NCBI RefSeq assembly: GCF_001463905.1
Contig: NZ_BBWR01000018.1
Coordinates: 1-64,000, forward strand
Length of the DNA stretch: 64,000 nt
Reading direction: 5' to 3'
DNA from: Aureimonas frigidaquae
Lineage (GTDB): Bacteria > Pseudomonadota > Alphaproteobacteria > Rhizobiales > Rhizobiaceae
The translations under genes and the position numbers were made by a program. Positions within the stretch are counted from its first letter, which is position 1. Every line of letters starts with the position of its first letter. Below the pieces are notes generated by a model. That model was not told where the DNA came from, ran no database searches, and worked only from the letters and a program-made list of their open reading frames with translations. Below are positions 16,854 through 36,165 of this stretch, piece by piece.

Positions 16854-16866
16854 GGCAGCCGCGACC

Positions 16867-22349: not shown

Positions 22350-22928
22350 TTGGCTTATACCTCGGAGGCCGATCCACTTTGCTATCCAGGCACCACGGTG
22401 CTGCGCAATCTGCTGGAGCTCCAGGTCCAGGAGGAACTAGATGAGGCGGAACTGATCCTGTTCCTCGAGCGCGCCGAAGAGCCCTTTCCCGCCGGCGACC
22501 TGGGTCCGGACCACTACCTCAGCCTGCATCACCACCTGTTCCAAGATGTCTACGGCTGGGCGGGTCAAATCCGCACGATCCGCATTGGCAAAGGGCAAAA
22601 CTGGTTCTGCTTTCCGGAATATATCCAAGTGTCTCTTGCCAAGGCTTTTGCTGAGTATGGCGATCCGGACGAGGTTGCTGCTTTGCCAGTGCAGATGTTC
22701 GTTCAGCGGACTGCCCATCTGCTGGCGGAAATTAATGCGGTGCACCCCTTCCGGGAAGGCAACGGGCGCACCCAACTGGCCTTTCTCAATCTGCTAGCGG
22801 CCAATGCCGGCTATACTATCGATCATGCCCACCTGGAGCCTGAGCGCGTGCTAGCGGCGATGATCGACAGTTTCGACGGAGACGAGCGCGCCCTTTCCGC
22901 TCTGCTAGCGGAGGCCTTGATGCATTAG
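22350..22928 (+). CDS. fic: Fic-domain protein (AMP-transferase toxin), TTG start
   Basis: Fic protein of 192 residues, a family that usually transfers AMP to target proteins such as gyrase or topoisomerase IV. The Fic motif HPFREGNGRTQ begins at catalytic H132 and continues to R140, and the flap GQIRTIRIGKGQNWFCFPEYI lies at about 73-93, all as in FicT/VbhT. The second motif arginine, expected at 143, is leucine. The start appears to be TTG at 22350 with AAGAAG about 9 nt upstream; no ATG allows a full domain. It follows the antitoxin by 6 bp. CTAG, a rare tetranucleotide, occurs four times in the gene, hinting at foreign origin. Activity cannot be assumed given the altered residue. Confidence 0.88.
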   Translation: MAYTSEADPLCYPGTTVLRNLLELQVQEELDEAELILFLERAEEPFPAGDLGPDHYLSLHHHLFQDVYGWAGQIRTIRIGKGQNWFCFPEYIQVSLAKAFAEYGDPDEVAALPVQMFVQRTAHLLAEINAVHPFREGNGRTQLAFLNLLAANAGYTIDHAHLEPERVLAAMIDSFDGDERALSALLAEALMH

Positions 22929-23271: not shown

Positions 23272-23347
23272 TGGTGAGCGCGCAGGGATTCGAACCCTGG
23301 ACCCCATGATTAAAAGTCACGTGCTCTACCAACTGAGCTACGCGCTC
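23272..23347 (-). tRNA. tRNA-Lys (anticodon UUU)
   Basis: Read on the minus strand, the 76 bases fold as a canonical tRNA. The acceptor stem is GAGCGCG/CGCGCTC, the D arm GCTC-AGTTGGTA-GAGC, and the anticodon stem CGTGA/TCATG closes the loop CTTTTAA with anticodon TTT. The T arm is CAGGG-TTCGAAT-CCCTG. Discriminator A is followed by an encoded CCA (23272-23274). The 3' end points toward the Fic module. Confidence 0.97.
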
Positions 23348-23473: not shown

Positions 23474-24616
23474 TTACACCTGCCCATCCGCCGTTCGCCA
23501 GGCGGCGTAGTCCTTCGCACCGTTGCCGGTGACGAGGCAGACGATGGTGTCATCTTCACCGATCAGGCCGTCATCGAAAAGTTGACGCATGGCGGCCAGG
23601 GACGTGGCGCCCGTCGGTTCGCTGAAGAGCCCGGCGCGGCGGGCAAGGTCGTGCATGGCCGACAGGATCATCGCATCGGGAACCGCGACGCCCTGCCCGC
23701 CCGTCGCGTGAACCAGCGACAGGGTCAGGCTGCCTTCGTCCGGGTAGGAGGCGAGCGGGTCCGATATGCCGGAGGCAAGCGTGTGCGGCGCGGGCCAGGG
23801 TGACACGTCCTGAAGGCCCTCCCGGAAGGCGGTGGCGATCGGGGCACAGCCTTCCGATTGGGCAGCGACGAGGCGCGGGACCTGCACGCTCCAGTCGCTG
23901 AAACCTTGCCAGACACCATGGACGAGCGGGCCCGAGCTCGTCGGCACCGCGACCCAGTCCGGCACGTTTCCGGAGAGATCGTCCAGGATCTCCTGCCCCA
24001 CCAGGCGCAGCGCGTCCACGCCATAGGCGTTCTGGTACGTGGTGGTGACGTTGGCGAAACCCGACTCGGCAGCAAGCTCGATCCCGACCTGAAAGGAACG
24101 GGAATAATCGCCCGGAACGCGGTGGAAGGTCGCGCCATAGGCGGCGATCTGGGCCACCTTGCCCTCCGGCGTCGATTCCGGGCACACGATGATGGCGGGC
24201 ACACCCGCATTGGCCGCGTAGCAGGCGGCCGCGGCGCCCGCATTGCCGCTGGATGCGCAGACGATTCCCGGTGCGCCCAGCGCGAGCGCGCGGCTGACAG
24301 CGGCGGCCACGAGCCGGTCCTTGAAGGAGCCGGAGGGGTTGCGCGTCTCGTCCTTCACGTAAAGCTGGCCGTGGAAGCGCTCATGCAGGAGGTCGGGCCG
24401 GACCTTGCGCATCAGGGTCCCGCCTTCGCCGAGCGTCACGCGCTCGCTGACGAAATCGGATGTCCGCCACCGGCGGCCGGCCGGCAAGGGCCGCTCGACA
24501 CGCAGGATCCCGCCGCAATCCGGGCAGCGATAGGCGAGCCTCGCCGCATTCCGCGCGTGGCAGCGCAGGCAGAACAATGCCGCTAAAGCGCCCTCGCTCG
24601 GTTGCTCATGCCTCAT
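23474..24616 (-). CDS. Threonine-synthase-like PLP enzyme with zinc ribbon
   Basis: Fold-type II PLP enzyme of 380 residues. An N-terminal zinc ribbon (C16-x2-C19 ... C31-x2-C34) is followed by the PALP domain with the PLP lysine K99 in NPSGSFKDR and a SSGNAGAA phosphate-binding loop. This layout is found in zinc-ribbon threonine synthases and related lyases. It is the last gene of a 12-kb catabolic operon and overlaps the D-threonine-aldolase-like gene by 4 bases. In that setting beta-elimination or beta-replacement on a hydroxylated or phosphorylated amino acid is more likely than housekeeping threonine synthesis, for which partner genes are absent. The reaction is therefore not assigned. 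The ATG at 24616 is chosen for the overlap and for the position of the zinc ribbon. Confidence 0.8.
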   Translation of the reverse strand: MRHEQPSEGALAALFCLRCHARNAARLAYRCPDCGGILRVERPLPAGRRWRTSDFVSERVTLGEGGTLMRKVRPDLLHERFHGQLYVKDETRNPSGSFKDRLVAAAVSRALALGAPGIVCASSGNAGAAAACYAANAGVPAIIVCPESTPEGKVAQIAAYGATFHRVPGDYSRSFQVGIELAAESGFANVTTTYQNAYGVDALRLVGQEILDDLSGNVPDWVAVPTSSGPLVHGVWQGFSDWSVQVPRLVAAQSEGCAPIATAFREGLQDVSPWPAPHTLASGISDPLASYPDEGSLTLSLVHATGGQGVAVPDAMILSAMHDLARRAGLFSEPTGATSLAAMRQLFDDGLIGEDDTIVCLVTGNGAKDYAAWRTADGQV

Positions 24617-25725
24617 TGCATCATCCCCCGCGCCGCCACGGGGAAGACGGTTTCGACCCGCTCGCCGCGCAGTCCCACATACCAGTCGTAACGGTCCACC
24701 GTCGGGTCGCAATGGCCGGGGACCAACCGCAACATCTCACCCGGCGCCGGCCCGGTAATCCCGCCCGCAAGCGCCAGCGTGCCGTGCTCGTCCGAGGCGC
24801 CGACGCAGGTCAGCCGGCCGTCCCATCCGGCCACGAGCGGCAGGCCGCTATCGACCGCAACGCCCTTGTGGCCGCAATCGACGACGACGCGGCCTGCCTG
24901 CGCGCTCATGACGGTCGACAGGACGAAGAGCGACTGGCGGAAGGCGGGCGCCGGATCGTTGCGTGCGTAATCGGCGTCCATGAAGATGTAGGAGCCGGTC
25001 TGCAACTCGTTGTAGACGCCGCTGTCCGCCTCCAACGCGAAGGTGCCCGTACCGGCACCGCCGACGATATCGCAGGACAGGCCTTTGAGTGCGATCAGCT
25101 CGATCGTGTGGCGCGTCAGCTCCGCCGCGCGGTGAATGGCCGCCTGGCGCTCCTCCACCTGGCGCATATGCTGTGCAGCGCCGTGATAGGCCTGCAGCCC
25201 GCCGAAGGTCAGGTGCGGGCTTGCGGCGATGCGCGCGGCAAGTTCCGCCGCGCCCGGCCCGGGCGCGACACCGCATCGCGCCCCGCCCATGACGTCGATC
25301 TCGACAAGCACGTTCAGACGCGTCGCCAGCGCGGCCGCCGCCTCCTCGATCCGCGGCAGAATGCGCGGATCGTCGAGACAGAGCGATATGCGGGCCATGC
25401 GCGTCAGCGCGGCCAGGCGCTTCAGCTTGGCGGGGGCCACGACCTCGTTGGAGACGAGGATATCCTCCACCCCGCCCCAGGCCAGGATCTCGGCTTCGGC
25501 CGGCTTCTGCACGCATTGGCCGATGGCTCCGCGCGCCCGCTGCCAATGGGCGATGACGGGCGACTTGTGCGTCTTGGCATGGGGGCGCAGCCGCACCCCC
25601 GCCGTGCGGCAGGCTGCGGCCATGGCGTCCATATTGGCCTCGAGCGCATCGAGGTCGATGATCAGGGCCGGCGTGTCGATCTCGCTCTCGTGCATGCCGG
25701 GCTCGGCGGGCGGGCGCTGTTGCAT
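24613..25725 (-). CDS. D-threonine-aldolase-like PLP enzyme (DSD1/AlrN family)
   Basis: Fold-type III PLP enzyme of 370 residues related to D-threonine aldolase and D-serine dehydratase. The PLP motif RPHAKTHKS has the likely Schiff-base lysine K51. Near the C-terminus PGHCDPTVD offers a His-x-Asp pair like the divalent-metal ligands of D-threonine aldolases; D-serine dehydratases use His-x-Cys instead. The enzyme could cleave or dehydrate a D-beta-hydroxy-amino acid. It starts 14 bp after the GMC gene and overlaps the threonine-synthase-like gene by 4 bases. The ATG at 25725 is preferred because an AGG lies 12 nt upstream; the ATG at 25695 is an alternative. Confidence 0.82.
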   Translation of the reverse strand: MQQRPPAEPGMHESEIDTPALIIDLDALEANMDAMAAACRTAGVRLRPHAKTHKSPVIAHWQRARGAIGQCVQKPAEAEILAWGGVEDILVSNEVVAPAKLKRLAALTRMARISLCLDDPRILPRIEEAAAALATRLNVLVEIDVMGGARCGVAPGPGAAELAARIAASPHLTFGGLQAYHGAAQHMRQVEERQAAIHRAAELTRHTIELIALKGLSCDIVGGAGTGTFALEADSGVYNELQTGSYIFMDADYARNDPAPAFRQSLFVLSTVMSAQAGRVVVDCGHKGVAVDSGLPLVAGWDGRLTCVGASDEHGTLALAGGITGPAPGEMLRLVPGHCDPTVDRYDWYVGLRGERVETVFPVAARGMMQ

Positions 25726-25739
25726 GATCCGCGCGGACC

Positions 25740-27368
25740 TTACGCCGCCAGCGACGAACGCGTCGTCGTGGACAGGCTCTGAAAATTGTCGCGGATATGG
25801 ACGGCCGCCCGAAGCGCCAGCGCCGAAATGGTGGGCGTCGGGTTGACCACGCCGCCCGTCGCCAGGACGCTGCCATCGACGATGAAGAGGTTCGGCACCT
25901 CCCAGCTCTGGTTCCACTTGTTGACGACGGATGTCTGCGGGTCGGACCCCATGCGGCAGGTGCCGATCATGTGCCAGGCCGGCGTGCGGTAGACCCCGTT
26001 CTCGTCGCGGTAATCCTGCAGGCTGTATTCGAAGGCGCCGCAGGCCTTGGCCAGCTCTTCCAGCCGGTCGAGCATGTAGTTCATCATCCGGCGGTCGTTC
26101 TCGCCCGGGGCGTAATGCGTGACGGCGGCCGGGACGCCGTCCGAATCCGTCAGATGGTCCGACAGGGTCACACGGTTGTCCGGGTTCGGCAGATCGTCGC
26201 CAATGGCGAAGACGCCGATCGAATGCCCGAAATGGCGCTGGAACCAGTCGTGATGCCCTTTGCCCCAGGGCGCGCGCGCCTTGCTGAACCAGCCGGCGGC
26301 AAGCTCGCCGGCCGAGGCGGTGGAGGTGATGCAGTTGAAATTGAAGCCGTTGACGAAACCCCGGGATACGTCCGTTTCGGCAAACTGGCGCGAGATGAGC
26401 GAGGCGACATAGCCGATCTGCCCGTCCACCGGCTCGTCCACGAACATCTCGCAGGCGACGAGCGTATGGTGCAGGAGGTACCGGCCGACCTGATCATTGC
26501 CATTGGCAAGATTGTCCGATGCCAGGAGCAGCCGGGGCGTGCCGATGCCATTGGCCGCGACGATGACGATGCGCGCTTTCTGGAACACCGTCCGGCCCGT
26601 GTTCCTGTCGATATACAGGGCGCCCGTGGCGCGTCCATCCGGGCCCTTCTCGATCTTGAGCACGCGGGCATGGGTGCGCAGCTCGCAGCCTGCGGCCAGC
26701 GCCTTCGGCCAGACGGACATGGAGTACTTGCTCATCGAGCCGCGCGGGCAGCCATTGCAGATCCCGCAATTGTTGCAGGCCGGCCGGCCGTCATAATCCT
26801 GCGAGACGGCGCCGGCTTCGACTGGCCACCAGTGCCAGTCCAGGCTGTCGAAGCCATCGGACAGGCGGCGGGCGACACTGGAAAAGGGCATGGGCCGCGT
26901 CGGGCACTGCGCGCGGGGCGGCATGGCCGGGTCCCCGGCCAGGCCCGACACGCCGACGATCTTGTCCGCCGCCTCGTAATAGGGGGCGATATCCTCATAG
27001 GCGATGGGCCAGTCCGGCTGCATCCCATGCTCGGTTCCCTTGCGGAAATCCGACGGGCGGTAGCGCGGCCAGATCGCCCCATAGATATTGGTCGAGCCGC
27101 CCACCGCATTCCACATGAGAATCTGGGACGAGTCCGAATCCACTGGAAAATCATCGGGATGGTGACGCTTGTTCACATCCGGACTCCAGTTGGTCTTGCG
27201 CTGCCAGGTCCAGTCCGCATGATGGTGCGGATGGTCCTGTGCCTCGACCCAGGAGCCCTGTTCCAGGCAGACCACGTCGAGCCCGCCTTCGGCCAGCACC
27301 ATTGCCGCCAGGGAGCCGGTGGCGCCCGCCCCGATGATCAGCACGTCACATGTGCGCGTTTCGTTCAT
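25740..27368 (-). CDS. GMC-family flavoprotein dehydrogenase
   Basis: FAD-dependent alcohol or sugar oxidoreductase of 542 residues, like the large subunit of gluconate 2-dehydrogenase or related membrane-linked sugar dehydrogenases. The dinucleotide fold IIGAGATGSLAA lies at about 10-21. A CNNCGICNGCPRGS segment around residue 190-205 suggests extra cysteines near an electron path. The C-terminal signature VDGSVLATGGVVNPTPTISA and the catalytic HMIGTCRMG region are present. No signal peptide is visible; in this family the small subunit often carries export. It overlaps the subunit-3-like gene by 4 bases. No cytochrome subunit is in the window, so the electron acceptor is unknown. Confidence 0.9.
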   Translation of the reverse strand: MNETRTCDVLIIGAGATGSLAAMVLAEGGLDVVCLEQGSWVEAQDHPHHHADWTWQRKTNWSPDVNKRHHPDDFPVDSDSSQILMWNAVGGSTNIYGAIWPRYRPSDFRKGTEHGMQPDWPIAYEDIAPYYEAADKIVGVSGLAGDPAMPPRAQCPTRPMPFSSVARRLSDGFDSLDWHWWPVEAGAVSQDYDGRPACNNCGICNGCPRGSMSKYSMSVWPKALAAGCELRTHARVLKIEKGPDGRATGALYIDRNTGRTVFQKARIVIVAANGIGTPRLLLASDNLANGNDQVGRYLLHHTLVACEMFVDEPVDGQIGYVASLISRQFAETDVSRGFVNGFNFNCITSTASAGELAAGWFSKARAPWGKGHHDWFQRHFGHSIGVFAIGDDLPNPDNRVTLSDHLTDSDGVPAAVTHYAPGENDRRMMNYMLDRLEELAKACGAFEYSLQDYRDENGVYRTPAWHMIGTCRMGSDPQTSVVNKWNQSWEVPNLFIVDGSVLATGGVVNPTPTISALALRAAVHIRDNFQSLSTTTRSSLAA

Positions 27369-27919
27369 CTCTGCAGCCCCCAGCGTTGCGTTACGGCCGC
27401 GTCGAGGTCGAGCTGCGTGGTGTCCACGCGTGTCACCTCGTCGGTCGTCAGGTAATGGCCGCGCCCGTGGCGCGGCGTGTCGCGGTTGAAGTCGAAGGGC
27501 GCCATCGGGTAGCCGGTCAGGTGCGGCCGGGCCGAATAGGGCCGGCCGCTGGCCTGGATGGCTGCGATCACGAAGGGCGTTTCGTAATAGGCCAGCACCG
27601 TCGCCGTGCGCAGGTGATCGAACAGCTTGGGCGAAGCCGCCTCAAAGGATGCCACGGCAGCTTCGCGGCGTGCCGCGTCCGGGCTCGACAACGCGCCCGC
27701 ACTCCAGCCGACCAGCCGGTCCAGCGTGTCGACGGCCGCATCGTCCCAGTCGGCCAGGACGCGCAGCGCCAGCAGACCGTGCACGCCGGCCTCGGACGCC
27801 GAGGGCCATTGCGCATCGCCCGGTATGAGCTCGTCCACCAAAGCGCGCATCATGCGCGCGCGCTCGGGTGGCGACAGGGGCGCGTTGCGCCGGTCCGACA
27901 TCGGTTCCGCCATGCTCAT
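27365..27919 (-). CDS. Gluconate 2-dehydrogenase subunit 3 family protein
   Basis: Small subunit of 184 residues expected to pair with the GMC flavoprotein encoded directly downstream. Recognisable features are the PLSPPERARMMRALVDELIPGD opening and the aromatic, proline-rich C-terminal part (YPMAPFDFNRDTPRHGRGHYL). There is no Tat motif or signal peptide, unlike many periplasmic subunit-3 proteins, so the complex could be cytoplasmic. The start at 27919 overlaps the aldehyde dehydrogenase stop by 4 bases; a longer upstream frame is open but lies within that gene. Identification rests on the family pattern and on adjacency to the GMC gene. Confidence 0.78.
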   Translation of the reverse strand: MSMAEPMSDRRNAPLSPPERARMMRALVDELIPGDAQWPSASEAGVHGLLALRVLADWDDAAVDTLDRLVGWSAGALSSPDAARREAAVASFEAASPKLFDHLRTATVLAYYETPFVIAAIQASGRPYSARPHLTGYPMAPFDFNRDTPRHGRGHYLTTDEVTRVDTTQLDLDAAVTQRWGLQR

Positions 27920-29385
27920 GGGCGCATTCCCCCACTCATCGTCACGGTGATCATCTTCAGCTCCGTCATCGCCTCGAGCGTGTGCCGCCCGCCGAGCCGG
28001 CCGATGCCGCTGCGCGTTCCCGAGCCGCCGCCGAAGGGAAGGTGAATTTCCCACCAGGTGCTGCCCGCATTGACGTTGACGATGCCGGCCGGGATCGCCC
28101 GGGCCATTTCCACGCCGCGCACGATATCGGTGGTGAAGACCCCGACAGACAGCCCGTACTCGCTGTCCAGCGCCAGCTGCAGCGCCTCTGCGTCGTCGTC
28201 GAAGGCAAGGACCGGAACGACAGGCCCGAAGGTTTCCTCGCGGTTGATTTTCATGTCCGGCGTCACATCGCGGATGATGGTCGGCTCGAAGTAGAGCGCG
28301 CTGCCCAGATCCTCCCGCGTGCGCCCGCCATGAAGGACGCCCGCTCCCTTTGCCACGGCGTCGTCCACATGCTCACGCACCTTGGCCGCCACCTTGGCAT
28401 TGTTGAGCGGGCCCATCGTCGTGCCCTGGTGGAAGGGATCGCCGAGCACGTGGCGGCGCGCATGCTCCACCAGCCTGTCGCACAAGGGCTCCACGATGGA
28501 GCGATGCGCGAGGACCCGGCCCGTCGCCGCGCAGACCTGGCCGGCATTGAAGAAGGCGCCGCCGGCCGCCGCCGCGGCCGCGGCGTCAAGGTCCGCATCC
28601 TCGAACACGACCACGGGGCCGTTGCCGCCGAGTTCCAGAAGAAGCGGCTTGCCCGCCGCCCGCTCGGCAATCCGCCGGCCCGTCGCCGCACTGCCGGTAA
28701 AACCGATCGCCGCTACGTCCGGGTGGGTGACGACCGCATCTCCCGCAACCGCGCCCTCACCGATGACGAGGTTGATCACCCCGGCCGGCAGGCCGCCTTC
28801 CGCGATGGCGTCCATGAGTTCGCAGGCCACGAGCGAGGTGGACGGCGCCGGCACCCAGACGATGGCGTTGCCCGTGGCGATGCCGGGCGCCAGATACTCG
28901 ACCGGAATATTGACGGGAAAATTCCACGGCGTGATGACGCCATAGACGCCCCTCGGCTCCCGCAGGGTCAGGACGAGCTTGGTCGGATCCTCGGCCGGAA
29001 GCGTCTCGCCGCCCATCTGCTTGACGAGTTCGGCGGCAAGTCGGAACCCGTCCGCGGCCTTGCCGACCTCTCCCATCGCCTCGGCCAGGACCTTGCCCTG
29101 CTCGGCCGACAGAACACGGGCGATGGCTTCGCGCCGCGTGTCGATCAAGGCGGCGATGGCCATGCAGATGCGCGCCCGCTCGAAGACGGGAACCTTGCGC
29201 CAGGATGCGCCCGCCGCCACGGCGGCGGCAACGGCCGCATCCACCGTCCTTGCATCCGAGCGCGGCAGGCGGGCGATCTCCTCGCCCGTCGCGGGGTTGA
29301 TGGCAGGCATGGTGTCGGCGTGAGCCAGCCATTCCCCGCCAATGTGGTTTGCCGGCACGCGGCGCAACGTATCGATACCGTCCAT
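27916..29385 (-). CDS. NAD(P)-dependent aldehyde dehydrogenase
   Basis: Aldehyde dehydrogenase superfamily enzyme of 489 residues that oxidises an aldehyde to the acid in the cytoplasm. The catalytic pair is intact: general base E251 in LELGGNG and nucleophile C285 in AGQVCAATG. The cofactor loop GFTGSAATGR precedes them, and TPWNFPVNIP is the usual early motif. Two starts compete. The ATG at 29403 would overlap the amidohydrolase stop by 4 bases. The ATG at 29385 has AAAGGA about 9 nt upstream and is preferred. Placed between the amidohydrolase and the GMC pair, it may act on the aldehyde the flavoprotein makes. Substrate specificity cannot be read. Confidence 0.93.
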   Translation of the reverse strand: MDGIDTLRRVPANHIGGEWLAHADTMPAINPATGEEIARLPRSDARTVDAAVAAAVAAGASWRKVPVFERARICMAIAALIDTRREAIARVLSAEQGKVLAEAMGEVGKAADGFRLAAELVKQMGGETLPAEDPTKLVLTLREPRGVYGVITPWNFPVNIPVEYLAPGIATGNAIVWVPAPSTSLVACELMDAIAEGGLPAGVINLVIGEGAVAGDAVVTHPDVAAIGFTGSAATGRRIAERAAGKPLLLELGGNGPVVVFEDADLDAAAAAAAGGAFFNAGQVCAATGRVLAHRSIVEPLCDRLVEHARRHVLGDPFHQGTTMGPLNNAKVAAKVREHVDDAVAKGAGVLHGGRTREDLGSALYFEPTIIRDVTPDMKINREETFGPVVPVLAFDDDAEALQLALDSEYGLSVGVFTTDIVRGVEMARAIPAGIVNVNAGSTWWEIHLPFGGGSGTRSGIGRLGGRHTLEAMTELKMITVTMSGGMRP

Positions 29386-29399
29386 CCCGTATGGTCCTT

Positions 29400-30557
29400 T
29401 CATTCGGCCGCTGTGGCGAGCTTCTGGCCCTGCGGCGCGATCTCCCGGCCGGCGATGACCAGCCCTGCGGCAAAGAGGCGTTCGCCGGCCACCACGGTTT
29501 CACCGCGCACGTCCTCCAGCGGGAAGCGGCCCTGCCGCATCTCCAGGATGCTGGCATCCCCCACGCTGCCGACCCGGAACGTGCCGAGTTCGGGGCGCTG
29601 CACGGCCGCCGCCGGCGCGCATGTCGATGCCGCGATGACATCGTTCAGCGGCATGCCGAGCGCCAGGAATTTGGACAATGTGGTGACCTGGTCGTAGGCA
29701 GGCCCGGTGATGCACAGCGAGTGCACATCCGACGAGATCGTATCGGGAAGGAAACCTTCCGCCATCATGGCGCGCGCCGTGCGCCAGGAGAATGAGCCCA
29801 TGCCATGGCCGATGTCGAAGATGACGCCCCGCTCGCGAGCCTCCCGGATGGCCGGCTTGACCTTTCCCCTGCCGTCGACGGGCGCATTCGGGAAGGGCCG
29901 GTAGCAATGGGTCAGGACATCGCCCTTGCGCAGCCGCGACACGACCTCCTCGTAGGAAGGCGGGGGCTCGTCGATATGGGCCATCAAAGGCAGCCCCGTC
30001 TCGTCGGCGACCTGCAGCGCCACGTCAAGCGGCTGGATGCCGGCGGGGCCGGATGCGTGGCGGCCGATCCGCACCTTGACGCCAATGATGACGTCACGGT
30101 TGGCCTCGATCACCTCCACCGCCTCGCGGGCGGCCAGTAGGCGCATGTCGTGGCCTTCGCCGAGCATGATGTTCTTGGCAAAGCCGTATATGCCCGCAAA
30201 GGACACATGCAGATAGACGAGGATGCGGCATTCGCTGCGCTCGATCACATGCCGCCGGAAGCCCGGGAAGTTGCCCGGCCCGGAACTTCCCGTATCGACG
30301 CAGGTCGCCACGGCGCTGTCGCGGGCAAAGGCATCGGGATCGACGCCGAGCGAGGTGCCGCCCCAATAGACATGGGTGTGCAGGTCGATCAGGCCGGGCG
30401 TGACGATCAGCCCGCTGCAATCGCGGCTCTTCGAACCGGACAGGCCATCGCCGATAGCGGCCACGACGCCGCCGGCAAAGGCCACATCGGCCACGCGATC
30501 GATATTCTGGGACGGGTCGACGACGCGTCCGTTGCGGAGCACCAGATCATACTGCAT
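29400..30557 (-). CDS. Amidohydrolase/deacetylase family metallohydrolase
   Basis: Metal-dependent hydrolase of 385 residues, dihydroorotase/imidazolonepropionase-like fold. Metal-site residues are visible in order: H60 and H62 in DLHTHVYWGG, K161 in GVKVRIG (probably carbamylated), H194 in AHIDEP, H217 in THCYRP and D277 in SSDVHS. This set matches the uncharacterised amidohydrolase/deacetylase subgroup often found beside sugar-acid or amino-sugar genes. It could open a lactam or remove an acyl group from an imported substrate. It overlaps the ABC ATPase gene by 11 bases, which ties uptake to this first enzymatic step. Confidence 0.86.
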   Translation of the reverse strand: MQYDLVLRNGRVVDPSQNIDRVADVAFAGGVVAAIGDGLSGSKSRDCSGLIVTPGLIDLHTHVYWGGTSLGVDPDAFARDSAVATCVDTGSSGPGNFPGFRRHVIERSECRILVYLHVSFAGIYGFAKNIMLGEGHDMRLLAAREAVEVIEANRDVIIGVKVRIGRHASGPAGIQPLDVALQVADETGLPLMAHIDEPPPSYEEVVSRLRKGDVLTHCYRPFPNAPVDGRGKVKPAIREARERGVIFDIGHGMGSFSWRTARAMMAEGFLPDTISSDVHSLCITGPAYDQVTTLSKFLALGMPLNDVIAASTCAPAAAVQRPELGTFRVGSVGDASILEMRQGRFPLEDVRGETVVAGERLFAAGLVIAGREIAPQGQKLATAAE

Positions 30558-31596
30558 GGATCAGACTTTCATTCTGTGTGTAGTTCTTTTCCAGGCGCCG
30601 GCCATCCGTGACGGAAAAATACCGGATGGCGTCCGGCTCGGCGGCCACGCTGATGGTCTGCCCGGTGGTCAGGCCCGAGGCGTCGCTGCATGTCGCGCGG
30701 GTCACCTGCCCATCGATCAGGATGTCCAGGAACTGGAAGGGGCCCGCCGGCTCCACCAGGATGAGCTCTCCCGTCATCGTCAGCCCGCCGCCCGGGCGGC
30801 GGACGGGCTTCAGATCATGCGGGCGCACGCCCACGATCTCGTCCGCCGGGCCGCCCAAAATGTGCGCCGGCAGGAAGTTCATCTGCGGGCTGCCGATGAA
30901 GCCGGCGACGAACTGATTGGCAGGCCGTGAATAGACCTCCATCGGCGGGGCGAACTGCTGCAGGACCCCGTCGCGCATGACGGCGATGCGGTCGGACAGG
31001 ACCATCGCCTCTTCCTGGTCGTGCGTGACGAAGATGACGGTGATGCCGAGCTCACGTTGCAGCCGGCGAATTTCGGTGCGCATGCGCACGCGCAGCGACG
31101 CGTCGAGGTTCGACAGCGGCTCGTCCATCAAAAGCGCTGCCGGGTTGCGCACGATGGCGCGGCCGACAGCCACACGCTGGCGCTGGCCACCGGACAAGGC
31201 CGCCGGCTGACGGTCCAGGAGCGTCTCGATGCCCAGAACGTCCGCCGCCCAGGCGACCTGACGCTCGATCGTCGCCGTATCGGCCTTTTGCTGGCGCAGC
31301 GGAAAGGCGATGTTCTCCCGCACGGTCATGTGCGGGTACAGCGCATAATCCTGGAAGACCAGCGCGATGTTGCGCTCGCGCGGGCCGAGTTCGGAAATCT
31401 CCTGCCCGTCGAAGCGGATCGAGCCTTCCTGCGTCGTTTCCAAGCCTGCGATGCAGAACAGGAGGGTGGACTTACCGCAGCCCGACGGCCCCAGGAAGGA
31501 GATGAACTCGCCATCGCGGATCGACAGGTCCAGATCCTTCAGGACATGCGTCTTGCCGTAGCGCTTGTTGAGGCCCGATATGGTGATGGACGCCAT
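30547..31596 (-). CDS. Carbohydrate ABC transporter ATP-binding protein, MalK/UgpC type
   Basis: ATPase of 349 residues that powers the fused permease. Walker A is GPSGCGKST with K42; Q-loop FQDYALYPHMTV, signature LSGGQRQRVAVGRAI, Walker B LLMDEPLSNLD and H-loop VTHDQEEA follow. A C-terminal TOBE region (about 240-349) is present, as in importers of the CUT1 class. It starts 14 bp after the permease and overlaps the amidohydrolase. MalK-type ATPases are often shared between systems, but tight placement argues for a dedicated subunit. Confidence 0.95.
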   Translation of the reverse strand: MASITISGLNKRYGKTHVLKDLDLSIRDGEFISFLGPSGCGKSTLLFCIAGLETTQEGSIRFDGQEISELGPRERNIALVFQDYALYPHMTVRENIAFPLRQQKADTATIERQVAWAADVLGIETLLDRQPAALSGGQRQRVAVGRAIVRNPAALLMDEPLSNLDASLRVRMRTEIRRLQRELGITVIFVTHDQEEAMVLSDRIAVMRDGVLQQFAPPMEVYSRPANQFVAGFIGSPQMNFLPAHILGGPADEIVGVRPHDLKPVRRPGGGLTMTGELILVEPAGPFQFLDILIDGQVTRATCSDASGLTTGQTISVAAEPDAIRYFSVTDGRRLEKNYTQNESLIHAV

Positions 31597-31610
31597 GGAG
31601 AGTGCTCCTT

Positions 31611-33512
31611 TCAGCCTTTGACCGCGCCGGACAGAGCGCCCTGCACCAGGAAACGTTGGAAGAAGAAGGCCACCGTGACGGGCGGCAGGATCGCCAGGAC
31701 GCTGGCGGCGAAGAGCGGCCCGTATTCGTAGAAGCGCGCCTGGTTCAGGAAGCCGGCGATGACGACCGGGATGGTCTGCGTGCGCGGCGTCGACGTCAGG
31801 ATCATGGCGAAGAGGAACTCGTTCCACGACACCAGGAAGGAGAAGATCAGCGCCGCGATGATGCCCGGCCGCACCACGGGCACGAGGATCTTGCGGAACA
31901 TGGCGAACCGGCTGCACCCGTCGATCAGCGCCGCGCGCTCCAGGCTTTCGGGAACGTTCTCGAAGGTCGACTTCATCATCCAGGCAGCCAGCGGCATGAG
32001 GATCGTCGAATAGGCGATGATGAGGCCGAGATGCGTGTCGATCAGGCCGAGCGTGCGGAACAGGACGAAGAAGGGCAGGACGAGCGTCAGCGCCGGCACC
32101 ATGCGCGTCAAAAGCAGCGCCCAGAGGCTGACCGCAAAGAAGCGCTTGGAGGCATGCCGCGCAAAGGCGTATCCGGCCAAAGTGCCGAGCGCCACGTTGA
32201 TCAACGCCACGCTGACGCCGATGAGCAGGCTGTTCAGGATCGACACGGGCACGCGCGCCGCCTGGACGCTCGTCGTTCCGCCATCCGGCAGAAGCACCGC
32301 ACGGTAATTGTCGAGCGTCAGGCTGGAGGGCCAGACGGAGGGCGGCGTGCGGATCAGGTCCGTCGCCGGCGACAGGCTGATCAGAAGAAGCGCCAGCACC
32401 GGCAGGAGCGACCAGACGAAGATCGCCCCGACGGCCAGCCGGAAGCCGGCCGATCCCAAATGCCGCGCGGCGGCCGGCGCCAGAACAGTCCGGCGGCGCG
32501 GCGTGGGCAGCGTCTCCATGCGGGGGCGCGCACCGCCGACAACGCGTTCGACCGTGGGCGTGTCGGCGTCGTTGCGGGCGGCTGTCACGCGGCGCGGACG
32601 CAGGACGACGAAGTACAGTATGGCGAAGGCGAGGCTGAGGAAGGTGAGGACATAGAGGATCGCCGCGCCCTCCCCGAACTTCAGAAACTGGAAGGACTGC
32701 ATGTAGCCGTGCCACGACAGGGTCGTCGTTGCCGCGCCAGGCCCGCCGCGGGTCATGATCAGGATGATGTCGAAGGTCATCAGCGCGTTGATGGTGGCGA
32801 TGACCATGGAAAAGACGAGCGTCGGCTTGAGCCAGGGCAACGTGATGGCAAAGAAGCGACGCACGGACCCTGCCCCGTCCAGAAGGGCTGCCCGGTGCAG
32901 GTTGGCGGGCATGGACTGCAGCGCCGACAGGAGCATGAGCGTGGTGAGCGGCGCCTGGTTCCACACCTGCGTCAGCGTGACGAGGTTCAGGGCGCGGAAG
33001 CCGTCGCCGAACCAGGGCCGTGCGAGGGAGCCGAGGCCAAGATCGTGGAGAAGCCCGTTCAACAGGCCGAAATTGCCCGCATAGACGAAAGACCAGAGCA
33101 CGCCGACCGAGACGGGCGCCATGGCCCAGGGCACCAGCACGACGCTGCGCAGAACCCCGCGCCCGAAGAAGGGCTGGTTCAGGACCAGGGCCATCAGCGT
33201 GCCGAGGACGGTCGTGCCGATCACGGCGAGGCTGGAGAAGTAAAGCGTGCGCCCGAGCGATGCCCAGAAGGCCGCATCGTTGAAGACCTTCTGATAGTTT
33301 GCAAGGCCCACGAAGACCCAGCGCTTGGTGATGGGATTGGTGCTGTTGAAGGACAGATACAGGCTGTAGAGCAAGGGCAGGCCGACGATCAGCACCATCA
33401 GGATGAGGGTCGGCGCCACGGCAAGATAGGCGAAGGCTGGCACGGACCGCTTCTTCCGGCGGCGCCCCTTGGGTGCCACCGACGCGGAAACGGACTGCAT
33501 GGGGATCGTCAT
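31611..33512 (-). CDS. Fused two-domain carbohydrate ABC permease (MalF-MalG-like)
   Basis: Single polypeptide of 633 residues containing both permease halves of a CUT1-type sugar importer. The first half (about 1-300) has six hydrophobic helices and an EAA loop HRAALLDGAGSVRRFF at about 203. A polar linker rich in R, P and T spans about 305-350. The second half has six more helices and an EAA loop LERAALIDGCSRFAMF at about 523. These subunits are normally separate MalF- and MalG-like proteins. The frame is continuous with no stop; an internal ATG at codon 332 could in principle also start the second half alone. The ATG at 33512 is chosen, since the frame upstream of it has no membrane or family features. 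Binding-protein and ATPase genes flank it. Confidence 0.9.
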   Translation of the reverse strand: MTIPMQSVSASVAPKGRRRKKRSVPAFAYLAVAPTLILMVLIVGLPLLYSLYLSFNSTNPITKRWVFVGLANYQKVFNDAAFWASLGRTLYFSSLAVIGTTVLGTLMALVLNQPFFGRGVLRSVVLVPWAMAPVSVGVLWSFVYAGNFGLLNGLLHDLGLGSLARPWFGDGFRALNLVTLTQVWNQAPLTTLMLLSALQSMPANLHRAALLDGAGSVRRFFAITLPWLKPTLVFSMVIATINALMTFDIILIMTRGGPGAATTTLSWHGYMQSFQFLKFGEGAAILYVLTFLSLAFAILYFVVLRPRRVTAARNDADTPTVERVVGGARPRMETLPTPRRRTVLAPAAARHLGSAGFRLAVGAIFVWSLLPVLALLLISLSPATDLIRTPPSVWPSSLTLDNYRAVLLPDGGTTSVQAARVPVSILNSLLIGVSVALINVALGTLAGYAFARHASKRFFAVSLWALLLTRMVPALTLVLPFFVLFRTLGLIDTHLGLIIAYSTILMPLAAWMMKSTFENVPESLERAALIDGCSRFAMFRKILVPVVRPGIIAALIFSFLVSWNEFLFAMILTSTPRTQTIPVVIAGFLNQARFYEYGPLFAASVLAILPPVTVAFFFQRFLVQGALSGAVKG

Positions 33513-33591
33513 GGCGGCGTCCTTGCGCGTATCGAAAAGTCTGGGGAGCGCGCCGGGGCGGCCGAACGGCCGCTCCGGCGTGTCGACCGGC

Positions 33592-34896
33592 CTAGCCGTA
33601 CTGGACCTTGAGCTCTTCGGCCTTGGCGGCCAGGGAGGCGACGAGCGCATCCGTGGAGCTGCCGGAGCGGATATATTCCTGCACCTGCTGCATCATGTAC
33701 ATGTCCCATTCCGGGAACCAGATCGTCTTGCCGATGGCGCGGGACGTGGCATTGGACAGCTGCTTCGACGCGACGTCGAGGTCCTTCCACTTGGAGAAGC
33801 TCGCCACCACTTCGGGGTCGGCCATCAGTTCCTTGTAGGCCGACCCTAAGCCGAACTCGAGCGCCCAGCGCTTGCTGACATAGTACTGGCCGTCCTTGGC
33901 CTTGCCGCCGAAGAACTGGAGCAGGTTCCAGACGCGCGCCTCGTCCACCGGGTTCGCGCCCATCAGATAGGCCGCCGTCCAGGCCATGGTGGATTGCGTT
34001 GCGCCCGGCATCAGCGCATTGCGCGCCTTGCCCGCGATCTTCGAGACGGCGGGATCGTTGGCGACTTTCTGGTTGTAATCATGGACGACCATGAATGTGT
34101 GCCGGCCCGACGCGTAGCTCGGCACGCCCTCGCCCGGCAGCGTCATGATGTCGGCCGTCACCAGGCCTTCGCGGTAGAAGGTCTGGTTGACCTCCAGGAT
34201 CTTGCGCAAGGCCGGCTCGTCGACGAAATTGCCCTGTTCGTCGAAGACTTTCGCGCCTTCCGAATACCAGGCCGAGAACATGTACCAGGACATGTTCGGC
34301 CATTGCTGCTGCCACATGCCGTGGAAAGGCGCGTCGGAAATGCCGTCGGCCTTCAGCTTGCGGCAGACGTCGAGGACCGCATCCCAGGTCTGCGGCACCT
34401 CTGCACCCGCCTTCGCCAGGTGTTCCTCGTTATACAGGAACGTATTGTACCCGGCGTAATAGGGCATGCCGCAAAGGGGGCCGCCATTGGGGAGCGACAG
34501 GCTTTCCACGCTCACCGGAAACATGCCGGCCTGGATCTCCTCGATCCCCGGCAGGCCGCTCAGATCGCGGATCCACTCGGCCGTGTGCCAGCGGGCAATG
34601 TAGTTTTCCTCGGAATAGAGCATGTCGATATGCTGGCCGCCGGTCAGCTTCGTTTCCGCAATGGGATGGTAGTCACCCGTGACGAGCTCGTAATTCACGT
34701 TCTCGTCGTAGAGCGACATGAACGTGCGCACGTTCTCTTCCACGATCTGCGGCTGATACTGCCAGCCGACGAAGGTCAGCGGTGTCGATGGCGCCGCGAA
34801 CGCGCGGCGCCCCATCATCCCCGCCGCGGCAAGGCCTGCCGTTCCGCGCAGAACCTGTCGCCTGGACAGCAGGTACCGATCCAGCAATGTCGTCAT
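33592..34896 (-). CDS. Carbohydrate ABC transporter substrate-binding protein (Tat-like signal)
   Basis: Periplasmic binding protein of 434 residues, family 1 (MalE/UgpB-like). The N-terminus LLSRRQVLRGTAGLAAAGMM carries a twin-arginine motif (SRRQVL), so the protein is probably exported folded through Tat, with cleavage near AFA-AP. Tryptophan- and tyrosine-rich stretches (MWQQQWPNMSWYMFSAWYSEG) fit a sugar-type ligand pocket. It is the first structural gene of the operon, with GGGGGA five bases before the ATG. A 79-bp gap separates it from the fused permease, leaving room for a stabilising structure that often raises binding-protein levels. Confidence 0.92.
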   Translation of the reverse strand: MTTLLDRYLLSRRQVLRGTAGLAAAGMMGRRAFAAPSTPLTFVGWQYQPQIVEENVRTFMSLYDENVNYELVTGDYHPIAETKLTGGQHIDMLYSEENYIARWHTAEWIRDLSGLPGIEEIQAGMFPVSVESLSLPNGGPLCGMPYYAGYNTFLYNEEHLAKAGAEVPQTWDAVLDVCRKLKADGISDAPFHGMWQQQWPNMSWYMFSAWYSEGAKVFDEQGNFVDEPALRKILEVNQTFYREGLVTADIMTLPGEGVPSYASGRHTFMVVHDYNQKVANDPAVSKIAGKARNALMPGATQSTMAWTAAYLMGANPVDEARVWNLLQFFGGKAKDGQYYVSKRWALEFGLGSAYKELMADPEVVASFSKWKDLDVASKQLSNATSRAIGKTIWFPEWDMYMMQQVQEYIRSGSSTDALVASLAAKAEELKVQYG

Positions 34897-35147
34897 GCCA
34901 GTCCCCCATGTCTTTAAGAAGATGAGCGAGCGCGTCGACGCGTGGCGTTGCCGCGCAGTCCGGTCAGTCGCGGCACCTGTTCAAGCGTGCCGGTGGAATG
35001 TCTTGCTATGAGGGGAAGCTAAGCGGGAATTCTGGAACCTGTCTACAGCTATTTTCATTTTCCGATCATTTTTCGCAGTCGCACCGCTGCATTGCGGTGT
35101 AATCGTGCAAATTTTGATCAGGAAATTAAAAAATCAGCAGAATGCCC
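34897..35147. promoter_or_regulatory. AT-rich control region of the catabolic operon
   Basis: The 251-bp gap before the binding-protein gene is much richer in A and T than the genes, most of all at 35040-35140. On the minus strand the core TGATC-(A/G)-(A/G)-AAA appears twice, around 35109-35119 and 35060-35075, one containing the palindrome TGATCA. These are candidate sites for the adjacent RpiR regulator. I could not place -35 and -10 boxes with confidence. Confidence 0.4.
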
Positions 35148-36092
35148 TCAATCGCAGAGCGGTTGGGTGTTGGGCGTGTTGCGGCGGTTGGCCAGTTGCT
35201 GGCGGACGCGGCGCAGCTTCTCGCGCCCGCCTTCCTTGCGCTCGATCGCCACGCCATAGGCGATGATGTCGATGGCGATCAGATGCGCGTAGCGGATCGT
35301 CGCAGGGCTGAGAATGTCCTCATCCGCCGGCATGTCCAGCCGTACGGCAACATCCACCGCTCCGTGCAGCAGGCTGTCGGAGGGTGCGATGCCGATGGTC
35401 AGGGCGCCATATTCCCGCGCCACGGTGACGGCGCGGGCGAGTTCCTCGTTGTCGCCGGTGAGCGAGCAGCACAGGACGATGTCGCCCCTGTCGATGGCCG
35501 ATGCCAGCATGAGCTGCATCTGGTGGTCGGCGCAGGGGATGACGCGGATGCCGAGGCGGAAGAAGCGGTTCTGCGCCTCCTCGATCATCCAGGAGGAAAC
35601 CCCGCCGCTGCCGAAGGCATAGAGTGTCGAGCAGGAAGCGATCAGGCGGATCGCTTCCTGCGCGCCGACAAGGTCGGCCGTGCGGAACATCTGGTCGATC
35701 GCCGCATGTGCGCGCGTGACGACCCTGTCGGCAATTTCGGCAACGCCCACCGGCTGCGTCTGCGGTTCGAGGTAGCGGATGCCGACCCGCATCGAGCCCA
35801 TGATGCGCAGCTTCAGATCTTTCAGGCCGTCACAGCCGATGCCGCGCGCAAAACGCGTGATGGTCGGCGCCGATACGCCGATCCACGTCACCAGCGCCTC
35901 GACCGGCGTTTCCACGAAACGGCGCGGTTCCGACAGGATGGCATCGGCAATCCTGCGGTTGGAGCGGGAATAGCTGTCCCGCTGGTCGATCAGATGGGCG
36001 ATGACGTCCTTGCGGGTGGGTGCCGGGGGGCGTACCGGACGGGAGGATTGCGTAGCGGAGCGTTTCTTTTCGCTGCCCGTCGTTCCCGCCAT
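35148..36092 (-). CDS. MurR/RpiR-family transcriptional regulator
   Basis: Regulator of 314 residues with an N-terminal RpiR helix-turn-helix domain (about 25-100, including IGVSAPTITRFARGIGCDG) and a C-terminal SIS sugar-phosphate-sensing domain (about 125-260, with LYAFGSGGVSSWMIEEAQNRF). The family responds to phosphorylated sugars or sugar acids. It lies upstream of the catabolic operon in the same direction and almost certainly controls it through the intervening AT-rich region. The ATG at 36092 has GGGGAGAGG 7 nt upstream and is preferred over a GTG at 36110. It differs from the second RpiR protein near 47 kb, so the two clusters have separate regulators. Confidence 0.92.
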   Translation of the reverse strand: MAGTTGSEKKRSATQSSRPVRPPAPTRKDVIAHLIDQRDSYSRSNRRIADAILSEPRRFVETPVEALVTWIGVSAPTITRFARGIGCDGLKDLKLRIMGSMRVGIRYLEPQTQPVGVAEIADRVVTRAHAAIDQMFRTADLVGAQEAIRLIASCSTLYAFGSGGVSSWMIEEAQNRFFRLGIRVIPCADHQMQLMLASAIDRGDIVLCCSLTGDNEELARAVTVAREYGALTIGIAPSDSLLHGAVDVAVRLDMPADEDILSPATIRYAHLIAIDIIAYGVAIERKEGGREKLRRVRQQLANRRNTPNTQPLCD

Positions 36093-36165
36093 CGCGCCGC
36101 CTCTCCCCACGGATCATCCCGTCCGTGACATGAGTACCATCTCCGCACGGCGGAAACAGTGCTGA

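What the first reader, a model, noticed from the sequence alone, without database searches (positions are those of the whole stretch)
23474..34896. Nine-gene catabolic operon with unknown substrate
Importer, amidohydrolase, aldehyde dehydrogenase, GMC flavoprotein with subunit 3, D-threonine-aldolase-like and threonine-synthase-like enzymes are tightly joined, mostly by ATGA overlaps. I cannot match this set to a described pathway. One reading: an acylated or cyclic polyhydroxy amino compound is taken up, opened, oxidised in two steps, and then cleaved by the PLP enzymes.
Basis: inference. Interest (0 to 1): 0.65.

Follow-up and report, generated by a model that had tools for sequence, protein, structure and literature searches.

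The report
Conserved operon, probably for amino sugars
A tightly packed set of genes, kept together in a range of soil- and plant-associated bacteria, looks like a complete uptake-and-breakdown route for an acylated, sugar-like amino compound that ends by snapping it into glycine and an aldehyde; the enzyme types are known, but this combination and its natural food molecule are not.

Summary
In detail: nine genes on the minus strand (34896 to 23474), four of eight junctions ATGA overlaps, and upstream an RpiR-type regulator gene that the finding missed. The set is a real unit: of 38 loci found through the GMC gene, 38 also hold SUB3, 27 the amidohydrolase, 25 the binding protein, 24 the ALDH and 22 a D-threonine-aldolase-like enzyme; of 16 control loci of GMC paralogues 0, 0, 0, 3 and 0 do. 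A second version keeps the upper half and changes the lower half. Best reading: an N-acylated 2-amino sugar (or similar polyol) is imported, oxidised at C1 by a cytosolic fructose/glucose-dehydrogenase-type flavoenzyme, deacylated to a D-2-amino-3-hydroxy acid, and cleaved to glycine plus an aldehyde. Substrate, activities and step order are inferred, not shown. The 'threonine synthase' is an optional paralogue; a separate thrC exists. Two published pathways share the logic, Ong (PMC9537276) and chd (PMC13400229); it belongs to neither. New variant of a known kind; interest 0.5.

The parts
35148..36110 (-). RpiR/HexR-like regulator (RPIR), likely regulator of the operon
   Evidence: Pfam HTH_6 41.8 bits (cut-off 28.3), SIS 21.5 (below its 25); best NCBIfam HexR 158 bits, below its cut-off 296; near 18 of 38 orthologous loci
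34990..35147 (-). conserved control region: two AT-rich boxes around GATC (about 35133-35109 and 35071-35051), 52 bases apart; a weak -35/-10 pair (35045-35017) read by eye only
   Evidence: alignment of 16 of 20 extracted upstream stretches: GATC present in 14 of 16 first boxes and 12 of 16 second boxes by my count; a pattern modelled on the second box occurs nowhere else in the window (hit by construction); the strict palindrome TTTTNNGATCNNAAAA is absent and the promoter scan scored nothing here
33592..34896 (-). SBP: CUT1-type solute-binding protein with a twin-arginine-like (SRRQVL) signal read by eye
   Evidence: PF01547 54.4 bits; TAT_signal 20.0, below its cut-off 22.7; weak similarity to sugar-binding proteins in PDB; orthologues 58-92% in 25 of 38 loci
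31611..33512 (-). PERM: both permease domains (UgpA-like and MalG/GlcU-like) fused in one protein
   Evidence: one frame, two BPD_transp_1 stretches; halves match UgpA and MalG/GlcU models, below their cut-offs; start codon read
30547..31596 (-). ATPase of the importer (UgpC/MalK type)
   Evidence: PF00005 120.1 bits; UgpC 391.3 bits, below its cut-off 432
29400..30557 (-). AMH: amidohydrolase/deacetylase family metallohydrolase, proposed N-deacylase
   Evidence: NF006689 431.2 bits, above its cut-off 371; H60, H62, K161, H194, H217, D277 kept in the type-1 and type-2 copies aligned and aligned with 2ogj
27916..29403 (-). ALDH: aldehyde dehydrogenase of no named specificity
   Evidence: PF00171 504 bits; best NCBIfam 392.3 bits against a cut-off of 770; Cys in FNAGQVC and LELGG motif
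27365..27919 (-). SUB3: gluconate 2-dehydrogenase subunit 3-like partner, no export signal seen
   Evidence: PF13618 24.1 bits, cut-off 23.4; no Tat-like signal by eye at the N-termini of the 29 called copies, one of which (L086) is a fragment; no PDB relative
25740..27368 (-). GMC flavoprotein of the fructose/glucose dehydrogenase type
   Evidence: closest PDB: fructose dehydrogenase 192.7 bits, glucose dehydrogenase 177.2 bits; C198, C201, C204, C207 and N509 in 37 of 37 copies, H466 in 36 of 37
24613..25725 (-). DTA: fold-III PLP enzyme of the metal-dependent D-threonine aldolase type
   Evidence: closest PDB D-threonine aldolase 7dib 327-333 bits; lysine region and H-x-D metal site
23474..24616 (-). 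TS: threonine-synthase-like fold-II PLP enzyme with two CxxC pairs, optional member, role unknown
   Evidence: 148.4 bits to TIGR00260 (cut-off 167.1) while a separate gene of the genome scores 270.6; SFKDR motif and two CxxC; near 11 of 38 loci

Best explanation
A probably RpiR-controlled operon for an N-acylated 2-amino-2-deoxy sugar or closely similar polyhydroxy amide. (1) A CUT1 importer brings it in (inferred from family). (2) The cytosolic GMC/SUB3 flavoenzyme oxidises C1, giving a lactone or acid (inferred). (3) AMH removes the acyl group, giving a D-2-amino-3-hydroxy acid such as an aldosaminate (inferred from neighbours of some of its relatives). (4) The D-threonine-aldolase-type enzyme cleaves it to glycine and an aldehyde, for a hexosamine a tetrose (inferred from its metal site). 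(5) ALDH oxidises that aldehyde, e.g. to a tetronate, which a four-carbon-acid kinase encoded elsewhere in the genome could take (inferred). Shown: gene set, its conservation, catalytic residues. Not shown: any activity, the substrate, the order of steps.
For: Conserved set in 38 loci against 16 paralogue controls. All 18 readable type-1 DTA copies keep H-x-D as in D-threonine aldolases, whereas three type-2 copies and a copy upstream of the A. altamirensis operon have H-x-C as in D-serine dehydratase 3anu. Type-2 loci change the lower half: dehydratase-type enzyme plus a fumarylacetoacetase-family hydrolase, and in part a CnbZ-family deaminase and a choline-dehydrogenase-like GMC. [quoted passage not shown] Importer and nearest GMC structures are sugar-type. 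Five AMH-bearing loci show no ALDH nearby, and the genome of one, L073, has none at E <= 1e-130, so GMC need not hand an aldehyde to this ALDH. A YgbK-like four-carbon-acid kinase is in 12 of 12 type-1 genomes tested against 93 of 199 genomes of the order. In print: OngB and OngC convert GlcNAc1A to KDG, with an RpiR-family repressor (PMC9537276, passages).
Against: No direct evidence of substrate; the binding-protein model is poor (mean pLDDT 54.3). Type-2 loci keep an ALDH although their dehydratase-type enzyme should not yield an aldehyde. The window's genome holds homologues of nagA and kdgK, so plain GlcNAc would not need this route. DTA is not found near 16 of 38 loci, and DTA-family homologues are common: 24 of 25 genomes or records searched have one. 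Six of nine AMH relatives read show no ammonia-lyase-family neighbour. No lactonase or electron acceptor is encoded among the nine genes.
Confidence: 0.47

Rival explanations
1. Primary-alcohol route, as proposed for chloramphenicol: the substrate is an N-acyl-2-amino-1,3-diol or amino-alditol; GMC makes the aldehyde, ALDH the acid, AMH removes the acyl group, DTA cleaves to glycine and an aldehyde.
For: The chd cluster of Nocardia testacea CS1 joins ALDH, GMC, a threonine aldolase, an amide hydrolase and a transporter with this logic (PMC13400229, passages and section 21). ALDH stands beside AMH in type 1 and type 2.
Against: The GMC is of the fructose/glucose dehydrogenase type, whose named members act on ring or secondary hydroxyls (recalled), and scores only 26.7 bits to a chloramphenicol-inactivating oxidoreductase (8b7s). 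ALDH is missing near some loci that have AMH and GMC. A CUT1 importer suits a sugar.
Confidence: 0.24
2. Dehydratase reading: DTA acts as an ammonia-lyase on the aldosaminate and gives a 2-keto-3-deoxy acid that enters by a KDG kinase, as in the Ong pathway; ALDH oxidises glyceraldehyde.
For: OngC, a fold-III PLP enzyme, makes KDG from GlcN1A (PMC9537276). A KdgK homologue is present in 10 of 10 genomes tested. The regulator is nearest HexR, whose effector is KDPG (recalled). A. altamirensis L051 has an H-x-C enzyme upstream and no type-1 DTA in the operon.
Against: H-x-D metal site in 18 of 18 readable type-1 copies; the best matches are D-threonine aldolases, dehydratases score 92.4 bits or less. 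A. altamirensis also has a 46% DTA homologue elsewhere.
Confidence: 0.17
3. Amino-acid-like reading: import of an N-acyl-D-amino acid or a beta-hydroxyaspartate-type compound, DTA being a BhcC relative of the beta-hydroxyaspartate cycle.
For: The only NCBIfam hit of DTA is BhcC.
Against: 406.4 bits against a cut-off of 690; the importer is CUT1-type and GMC/SUB3 would have no clear role. BhcA, B and D were not sought.
Confidence: 0.06

Closest known systems
Ong pathway (GlcNAc1A from oxidised chitin, Pseudoalteromonas; PMC9537276, PMC12017989, passages)
   Same: Deacylating amidohydrolase followed by a fold-III PLP enzyme, no phosphorylation first, RpiR-family regulator
   Different: Ong has a D-aminoacylase-type deacetylase, a sodium symporter, outer-membrane receptors, a hexosaminidase and KdgK, and starts from an already oxidised sugar; the window operon has an ABC importer, its own GMC/SUB3 and ALDH, and a PLP enzyme with an aldolase-type metal site
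chd chloramphenicol cluster (Nocardia testacea CS1; PMC13400229, passages and section 21)
   Same: GMC + ALDH + amide hydrolase + threonine aldolase + transporter
   Different: Named there: an L-threonine aldolase, a hippurate hydrolase, a proton-dependent oligopeptide transporter and a GMC related to CapO/CmO/ChlOR; here a D-threonine-aldolase-type enzyme, another amidohydrolase family, a CUT1 importer and a fructose-dehydrogenase-type GMC with SUB3
DgaE-type D-glucosaminate-6-phosphate route (Klebsiella L090 cluster; Salmonella enzyme, PMC9529869, passages)
   Same: A relative of AMH (31% identity) sits directly before the DgaE-family enzyme and a KDGP aldolase
   Different: No DgaE-family enzyme or PTS among the operon's genes; [quoted passage not shown]
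Fructose dehydrogenase / glucose dehydrogenase complexes (7w2j, 6a2u)
   Same: Large-subunit similarity, catalytic His and Asn positions, cysteines in the same region
   Different: No export signal seen on SUB3, no cytochrome gene among the operon's genes

Membership tests
Amidohydrolase/deacetylase family metallohydrolase (NF006689) | score above curated cut-off and metal ligands | tested here: met
   431.2 vs 371 bits; ligand positions aligned with 2ogj and kept in type-1 and type-2 copies (the Granulicella relative L096 departs at H194); the narrower EF_0837 model is not reached (243.8 vs 432.15)
Metal-dependent D-threonine aldolase | Schiff-base lysine region and H-x-D metal site | tested here: met
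   H-x-D in 18 of 18 readable type-1 copies
Metal-dependent D-threonine aldolase | retro-aldol activity on D-beta-hydroxy amino acids | not testable with these tools
   needs an assay
3-hydroxy-D-aspartate aldolase BhcC (NF045642) | score above equivalog cut-off 690 | tested here: not met
   406.4 bits
D-serine dehydratase type | H-x-C metal site as in 3anu | tested here: not met
   window has H-C-D
Fructose/glucose dehydrogenase-type GMC complex | large-subunit similarity, catalytic His and Asn | tested here: met
   192.7 and 177.2 bits; H466, N509
Fructose/glucose dehydrogenase-type GMC complex | exported small subunit and cytochrome c subunit | tested here: not met
   no signal on SUB3 by eye and no cytochrome among the operon's genes; a cytochrome elsewhere in the genome was not sought
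Threonine synthase (TIGR00260) | score above cut-off 167.1 | tested here: not met
   148.4 bits; another gene in the genome scores 270.6
Ong pathway | OngB-type (D-aminoacylase-like) deacetylase | tested here: not met
   by proxy: AMH aligns with solved D-aminoacylases over residues 3-63 only; OngB itself was not compared
Ong pathway | fold-III PLP enzyme acting on the aldosaminate | tested here: inconclusive
   Ala_racemase_N and D-ser_dehydrat domains; substrate not testable
chd-type chloramphenicol catabolism | GMC of the CapO/CmO/ChdB type | not tested
   those sequences were not compared; only 8b7s, 26.7 bits
CUT1 sugar ABC importer | SBP_bac_1, two permease domains, UgpC/MalK-type ATPase | tested here: met
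   the permeases are fused; CUT1 is a recalled label

The most novel reading that the evidence does not exclude
A phosphorylation-free route for N-acylated amino sugars that starts from the unoxidised sugar: a cytosolic flavoenzyme makes the sugar acid, it is deacylated and then split by a D-threonine-aldolase-type enzyme into glycine and a tetrose, with a second natural version that swaps the aldolase half for a dehydratase/hydrolase half. It would suit sugars that cannot be phosphorylated at C6, such as the 2-acetamido-2,6-dideoxyhexoses of bacterial cell-surface polysaccharides.
Probability: 0.3. Interest if true: 0.7.

Novelty: new variant of a known kind. Interest (0 to 1): 0.5.

Why it matters
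Known routes for GlcNAc, GalNAc, ManNAc and MurNAc start by phosphorylation, as the Ong paper stresses. A recurrent operon that looks like an oxidise-deacylate-cleave route would add another non-phosphorylating logic, in soil- and plant-associated Alphaproteobacteria; it would give a testable role to an amidohydrolase/deacetylase family that in some bacteria stands next to DgaE-type enzymes, and would offer D-threonine-aldolase-type enzymes that may act on sugar acids.

Tried and rejected
Binding-protein structure: AlphaFold2 on 16 orthologues gave mean pLDDT 54.3 and pTM 0.49; no fold search was made with it, so no ligand hint. Plain GlcNAc as the substrate: made less likely by homologues of nagA and kdgK in the same genome. 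Housekeeping threonine synthase: rejected. Strict palindromic operator: absent from the window; only looser boxes stand. Sigma-70 promoter: none scored in front of the operon. Genes beyond the operon as substrate hints: in the nine loci whose unassigned genes I listed they differ; the Brucella haematophila locus has SIS- and kinase-like genes next door, by eye only. The 'alanine racemase' of L047 was put in the DTA alignment but lacks the motifs and scores as a true alanine racemase, though under that model's cut-off (135.8 vs 168); it is not counted. Literature: ten searches gave no paper on this operon; phrases for QuiNAc/FucNAc catabolism and 'glucosaminate dehydratase' returned nothing, which says only that the held library lacks those phrases. 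A recalled link between a D-glucosaminate dehydratase and D-threonine aldolases could not be checked and is not used.

Papers: PMC9537276 abstract and passages; PMC12017989 passages; PMC13400229 passages and section 21; PMC12343721 and PMC9529869 passages; other papers only in search listings.

Full report
What is there. The window lies in a 4.1 Mb genome (G000, contig C18), closest by its GMC gene to Aureimonas altamirensis (89% identity). On the minus strand from 34896 to 23474 stand nine genes: SBP, a fused permease (PERM), ATPase, amidohydrolase (AMH), ALDH, SUB3, GMC, a D-threonine-aldolase-like enzyme (DTA) and a threonine-synthase-like enzyme (TS). Four of eight junctions are ATGA overlaps. 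A tenth gene, an RpiR/HexR-like regulator (35148-36110), reads the same way, 251 bases upstream of SBP.

Is it a unit? I used the GMC alignment A1 (five sequences) to scan genome contigs (84,980 species by its description). Two peptide patterns were used; 86 stretches matched and 38 loci were confirmed. tblastn of the window proteins against these loci, and against 16 loci of GMC paralogues of the same order (39-44% identity) as control, gave at E <= 1e-10: RPIR 18/38 vs 0/16, SBP 25 vs 0, PERM 32 vs 3, ATPase 34 vs 9, AMH 27 vs 0, ALDH 24 vs 3, SUB3 38 vs 0, DTA 22 vs 0, TS 11 vs 0. GMC is present in all by selection. Thirteen of the 38 loci are under 21 kb, so counts are lower bounds; several are close kin (two A. 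altamirensis, several Inquilinus and Mesorhizobium), so they are not 38 independent events. Some of the 38 hold SUB3-GMC with other partners: L063 (the same record as L047), L074, L075, L083, L084, L086 have neither AMH nor DTA. The GMC gene is rare: 4 of 297 genomes of the order have one at 76% identity or more, counting the window's own; of these G000 and G050 have the operon, G071 and G231 only SUB3-GMC beside another importer.

Two versions. Type 1 (window; Rhizobium, Mesorhizobium, Brucella haematophila, Inquilinus and others) has the order RPIR-SBP-PERM-ATPase-AMH-ALDH-SUB3-GMC-DTA-TS, with RPIR, ALDH, DTA or TS missing in some. Type 2 (Sinorhizobium RAC02 L048, from the plasmid search; Aminobacter HY435 L062 and Kaistia granuli L082; L066 likewise, but its stretch ends before the place of DTA) has AMH (44-46%), ALDH (51-52%), SUB3, GMC (77-80%), an importer with split permeases, a TetR gene and a distant fold-III PLP enzyme. 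L048 also has a fumarylacetoacetase-family hydrolase (187.8 bits to 2,4-didehydro-3-deoxy-L-rhamnonate hydrolase, cut-off 500), a CnbZ-family deaminase (384.2, cut-off 220) and a choline-dehydrogenase-like GMC (544.8, cut-off 605). The hydrolase recurs in all four loci, the CnbZ gene was called in L048 and L066. A close relative of the hydrolase (78-86%) is in 3 of 3 type-2 genomes searched; of 12 type-1 genomes three have one at E <= 1e-60, the best 53%.

The PLP step. The metal site separates the versions. H-x-D stands in 18 of 18 readable type-1 copies (17, L073; L072 is cut), as in D-threonine aldolases 7dib and 4v15 and in BhcC 6qkb; H-x-C in L048, L062, L082 and in the enzyme upstream of the A. 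altamirensis L051 operon, as in D-serine dehydratase 3anu. The more distant copies in L050, L078 and L081 are H-x-D. L051 has no type-1 DTA between GMC and TS, but that genome has a 46% DTA homologue elsewhere, and 24 of 25 genomes or records searched have at least one DTA-family protein. I read type 1 as aldol cleavage and type 2 as dehydration. This rests on family knowledge, not on an assay.

The deacylation step. AMH passes its NCBIfam cut-off (431.2 vs 371) and keeps the metal ligands. Of 204 plasmid records with an AMH match (40 listed) I read eleven annotated neighbourhoods, picked by hand (the plasmid gene tables are incomplete), and fetched a twelfth, L048, that has no annotation. Klebsiella has AMH-DgaE family enzyme-KDGP aldolase-lactonase in a row; [quoted passage not shown] Sagittula and Granulicella have weaker DgaE-like enzymes (276.3 and 156.7 bits, below the cut-off) with RidA; Granulicella also has a lactonase and a BBE-domain flavoprotein, and its AMH departs at one ligand. 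Dysgonomonadaceae zrk40 has RidA only. Chelativorans L050 has ALDH, a fold-III PLP enzyme and a FAH-family protein. Salmonella, Pantoea, R. lentis, Thermomicrobium and Azospirillum show none of this, nor does Mesorhizobium L049. So the link to DgaE-type enzymes is real in some members of the family, not in most that I read. [quoted passage not shown]

The oxidation step. GMC is nearest fructose and glucose dehydrogenases and keeps the catalytic His (36 of 37) and Asn (37 of 37) and four cysteines (37 of 37). SUB3 shows no export signal by eye, so the complex is probably cytosolic; its electron acceptor is unknown. In Geminicoccus L078 the GMC is followed by a D-cysteine-desulfhydrase-family enzyme and an L-fucono-lactonase-like protein (128.4 bits, cut-off 400); in L047 SUB3-GMC follows a weakly aldose-epimerase-like gene (29.1 bits, cut-off 251). 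These are hints, all below cut-off, that an aldose becomes a lactone. Five AMH-bearing loci (L073, L076, L078, L080, L088) show no ALDH nearby; of 12 genomes tested, those of L073 and L081 have no ALDH at E <= 1e-130, the other ten do.

After cleavage. If a hexosaminate is split, a tetrose results. A YgbK-like four-carbon-acid kinase is in 12 of 12 type-1 genomes tested, all at E <= 1e-50, and in 1 of 3 type-2 genomes; 93 of 199 genomes of the order have one at E <= 1e-50. The binomial figure (about 1e-4; about 2e-3 if collapsed to nine groups) ignores genome size and kinship, and some type-1 genomes lie outside the order; I treat it as suggestive only.

The TS gene. The genome has another gene that passes the thrC model (270.6 bits); the window gene scores 148.4, under the cut-off of 167.1. 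TS is near 11 of 38 loci, in one (L087) at only 38% identity, and no relative was found at E <= 1e-20 in G300, G305 and G308. Its role is open; a fold-II enzyme in the same place in Geminicoccus suggests a job on D-amino acids (inference).

Control. Of 20 upstream stretches extracted I aligned 16, leaving out L076, L080, L087 and L088. They show two AT-rich boxes; GATC stands in 14 of 16 first boxes and 12 of 16 second boxes by my count, 52 bases apart in the window. A pattern modelled on the second box hits only that site in the window, which is by construction. The strict palindrome is not in the window, and no sigma-70 promoter was scored there.

Known relatives. The Ong pathway (PMC9537276, passages) shows deacetylation of GlcNAc1A and deamination by a fold-III PLP enzyme to KDG, with an RpiR-family repressor; OngB is a D-aminoacylase-type enzyme (PMC12017989, passages), unlike AMH. 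The chd cluster (PMC13400229) couples GMC, ALDH, amide hydrolase and threonine aldolase on chloramphenicol; the roles of ALDH, hydrolase and aldolase there are themselves proposed. The operon works like a cross of the two and is a member of neither. Ten literature searches found no description of it in the held library.

Verdict. A real, conserved, probably RpiR-controlled catabolic operon whose enzymes fit an N-acylated amino sugar or similar polyol, cleaved to glycine and an aldehyde. Substrate and step order are inferred. New variant of a known kind; interest 0.5.

Noticed in passing
window 36166-36759 (-): A 197-aa protein matches the sialyltransferase family GT29 (29.5 bits, cut-off 23), unusual for a bacterium (recalled); a glycosyltransferase gene (37802-38977) lies nearby.
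   Followed up: no
window 23272-23347 (-): A tRNA-Lys gene lies just downstream of the operon's end; flanks outside the operon differ in the nine relatives listed, so it could mark an island boundary.
   Followed up: no
window 31611-33512 (-): Both permeases of the importer are fused in one polypeptide in type-1 operons, while type-2 operons have them split.
   Followed up: partly
window 16621-21809 (+): Siderophore-type uptake genes: periplasmic binding protein, two FecCD permeases, and a protein with DUF2218 and siderophore-interacting (SIP) domains.
   Followed up: no
window 22350-22928 (+): A Fic/DOC-family protein (61 bits) close to the tRNA-Lys gene.
   Followed up: no
L051 97-1212 (+): In A. 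altamirensis a D-serine-dehydratase-type enzyme (H-x-C) stands upstream of the regulator while the type-1 aldolase gene is missing from the operon: possibly a natural swap, though a 46% DTA homologue lies elsewhere in that genome.
   Followed up: partly
L048 25657-26451 (+): The type-2 locus carries a CnbZ-family deaminase (384.2 bits, cut-off 220), a family named for aminochloromuconate, in what looks like a sugar pathway.
   Followed up: no
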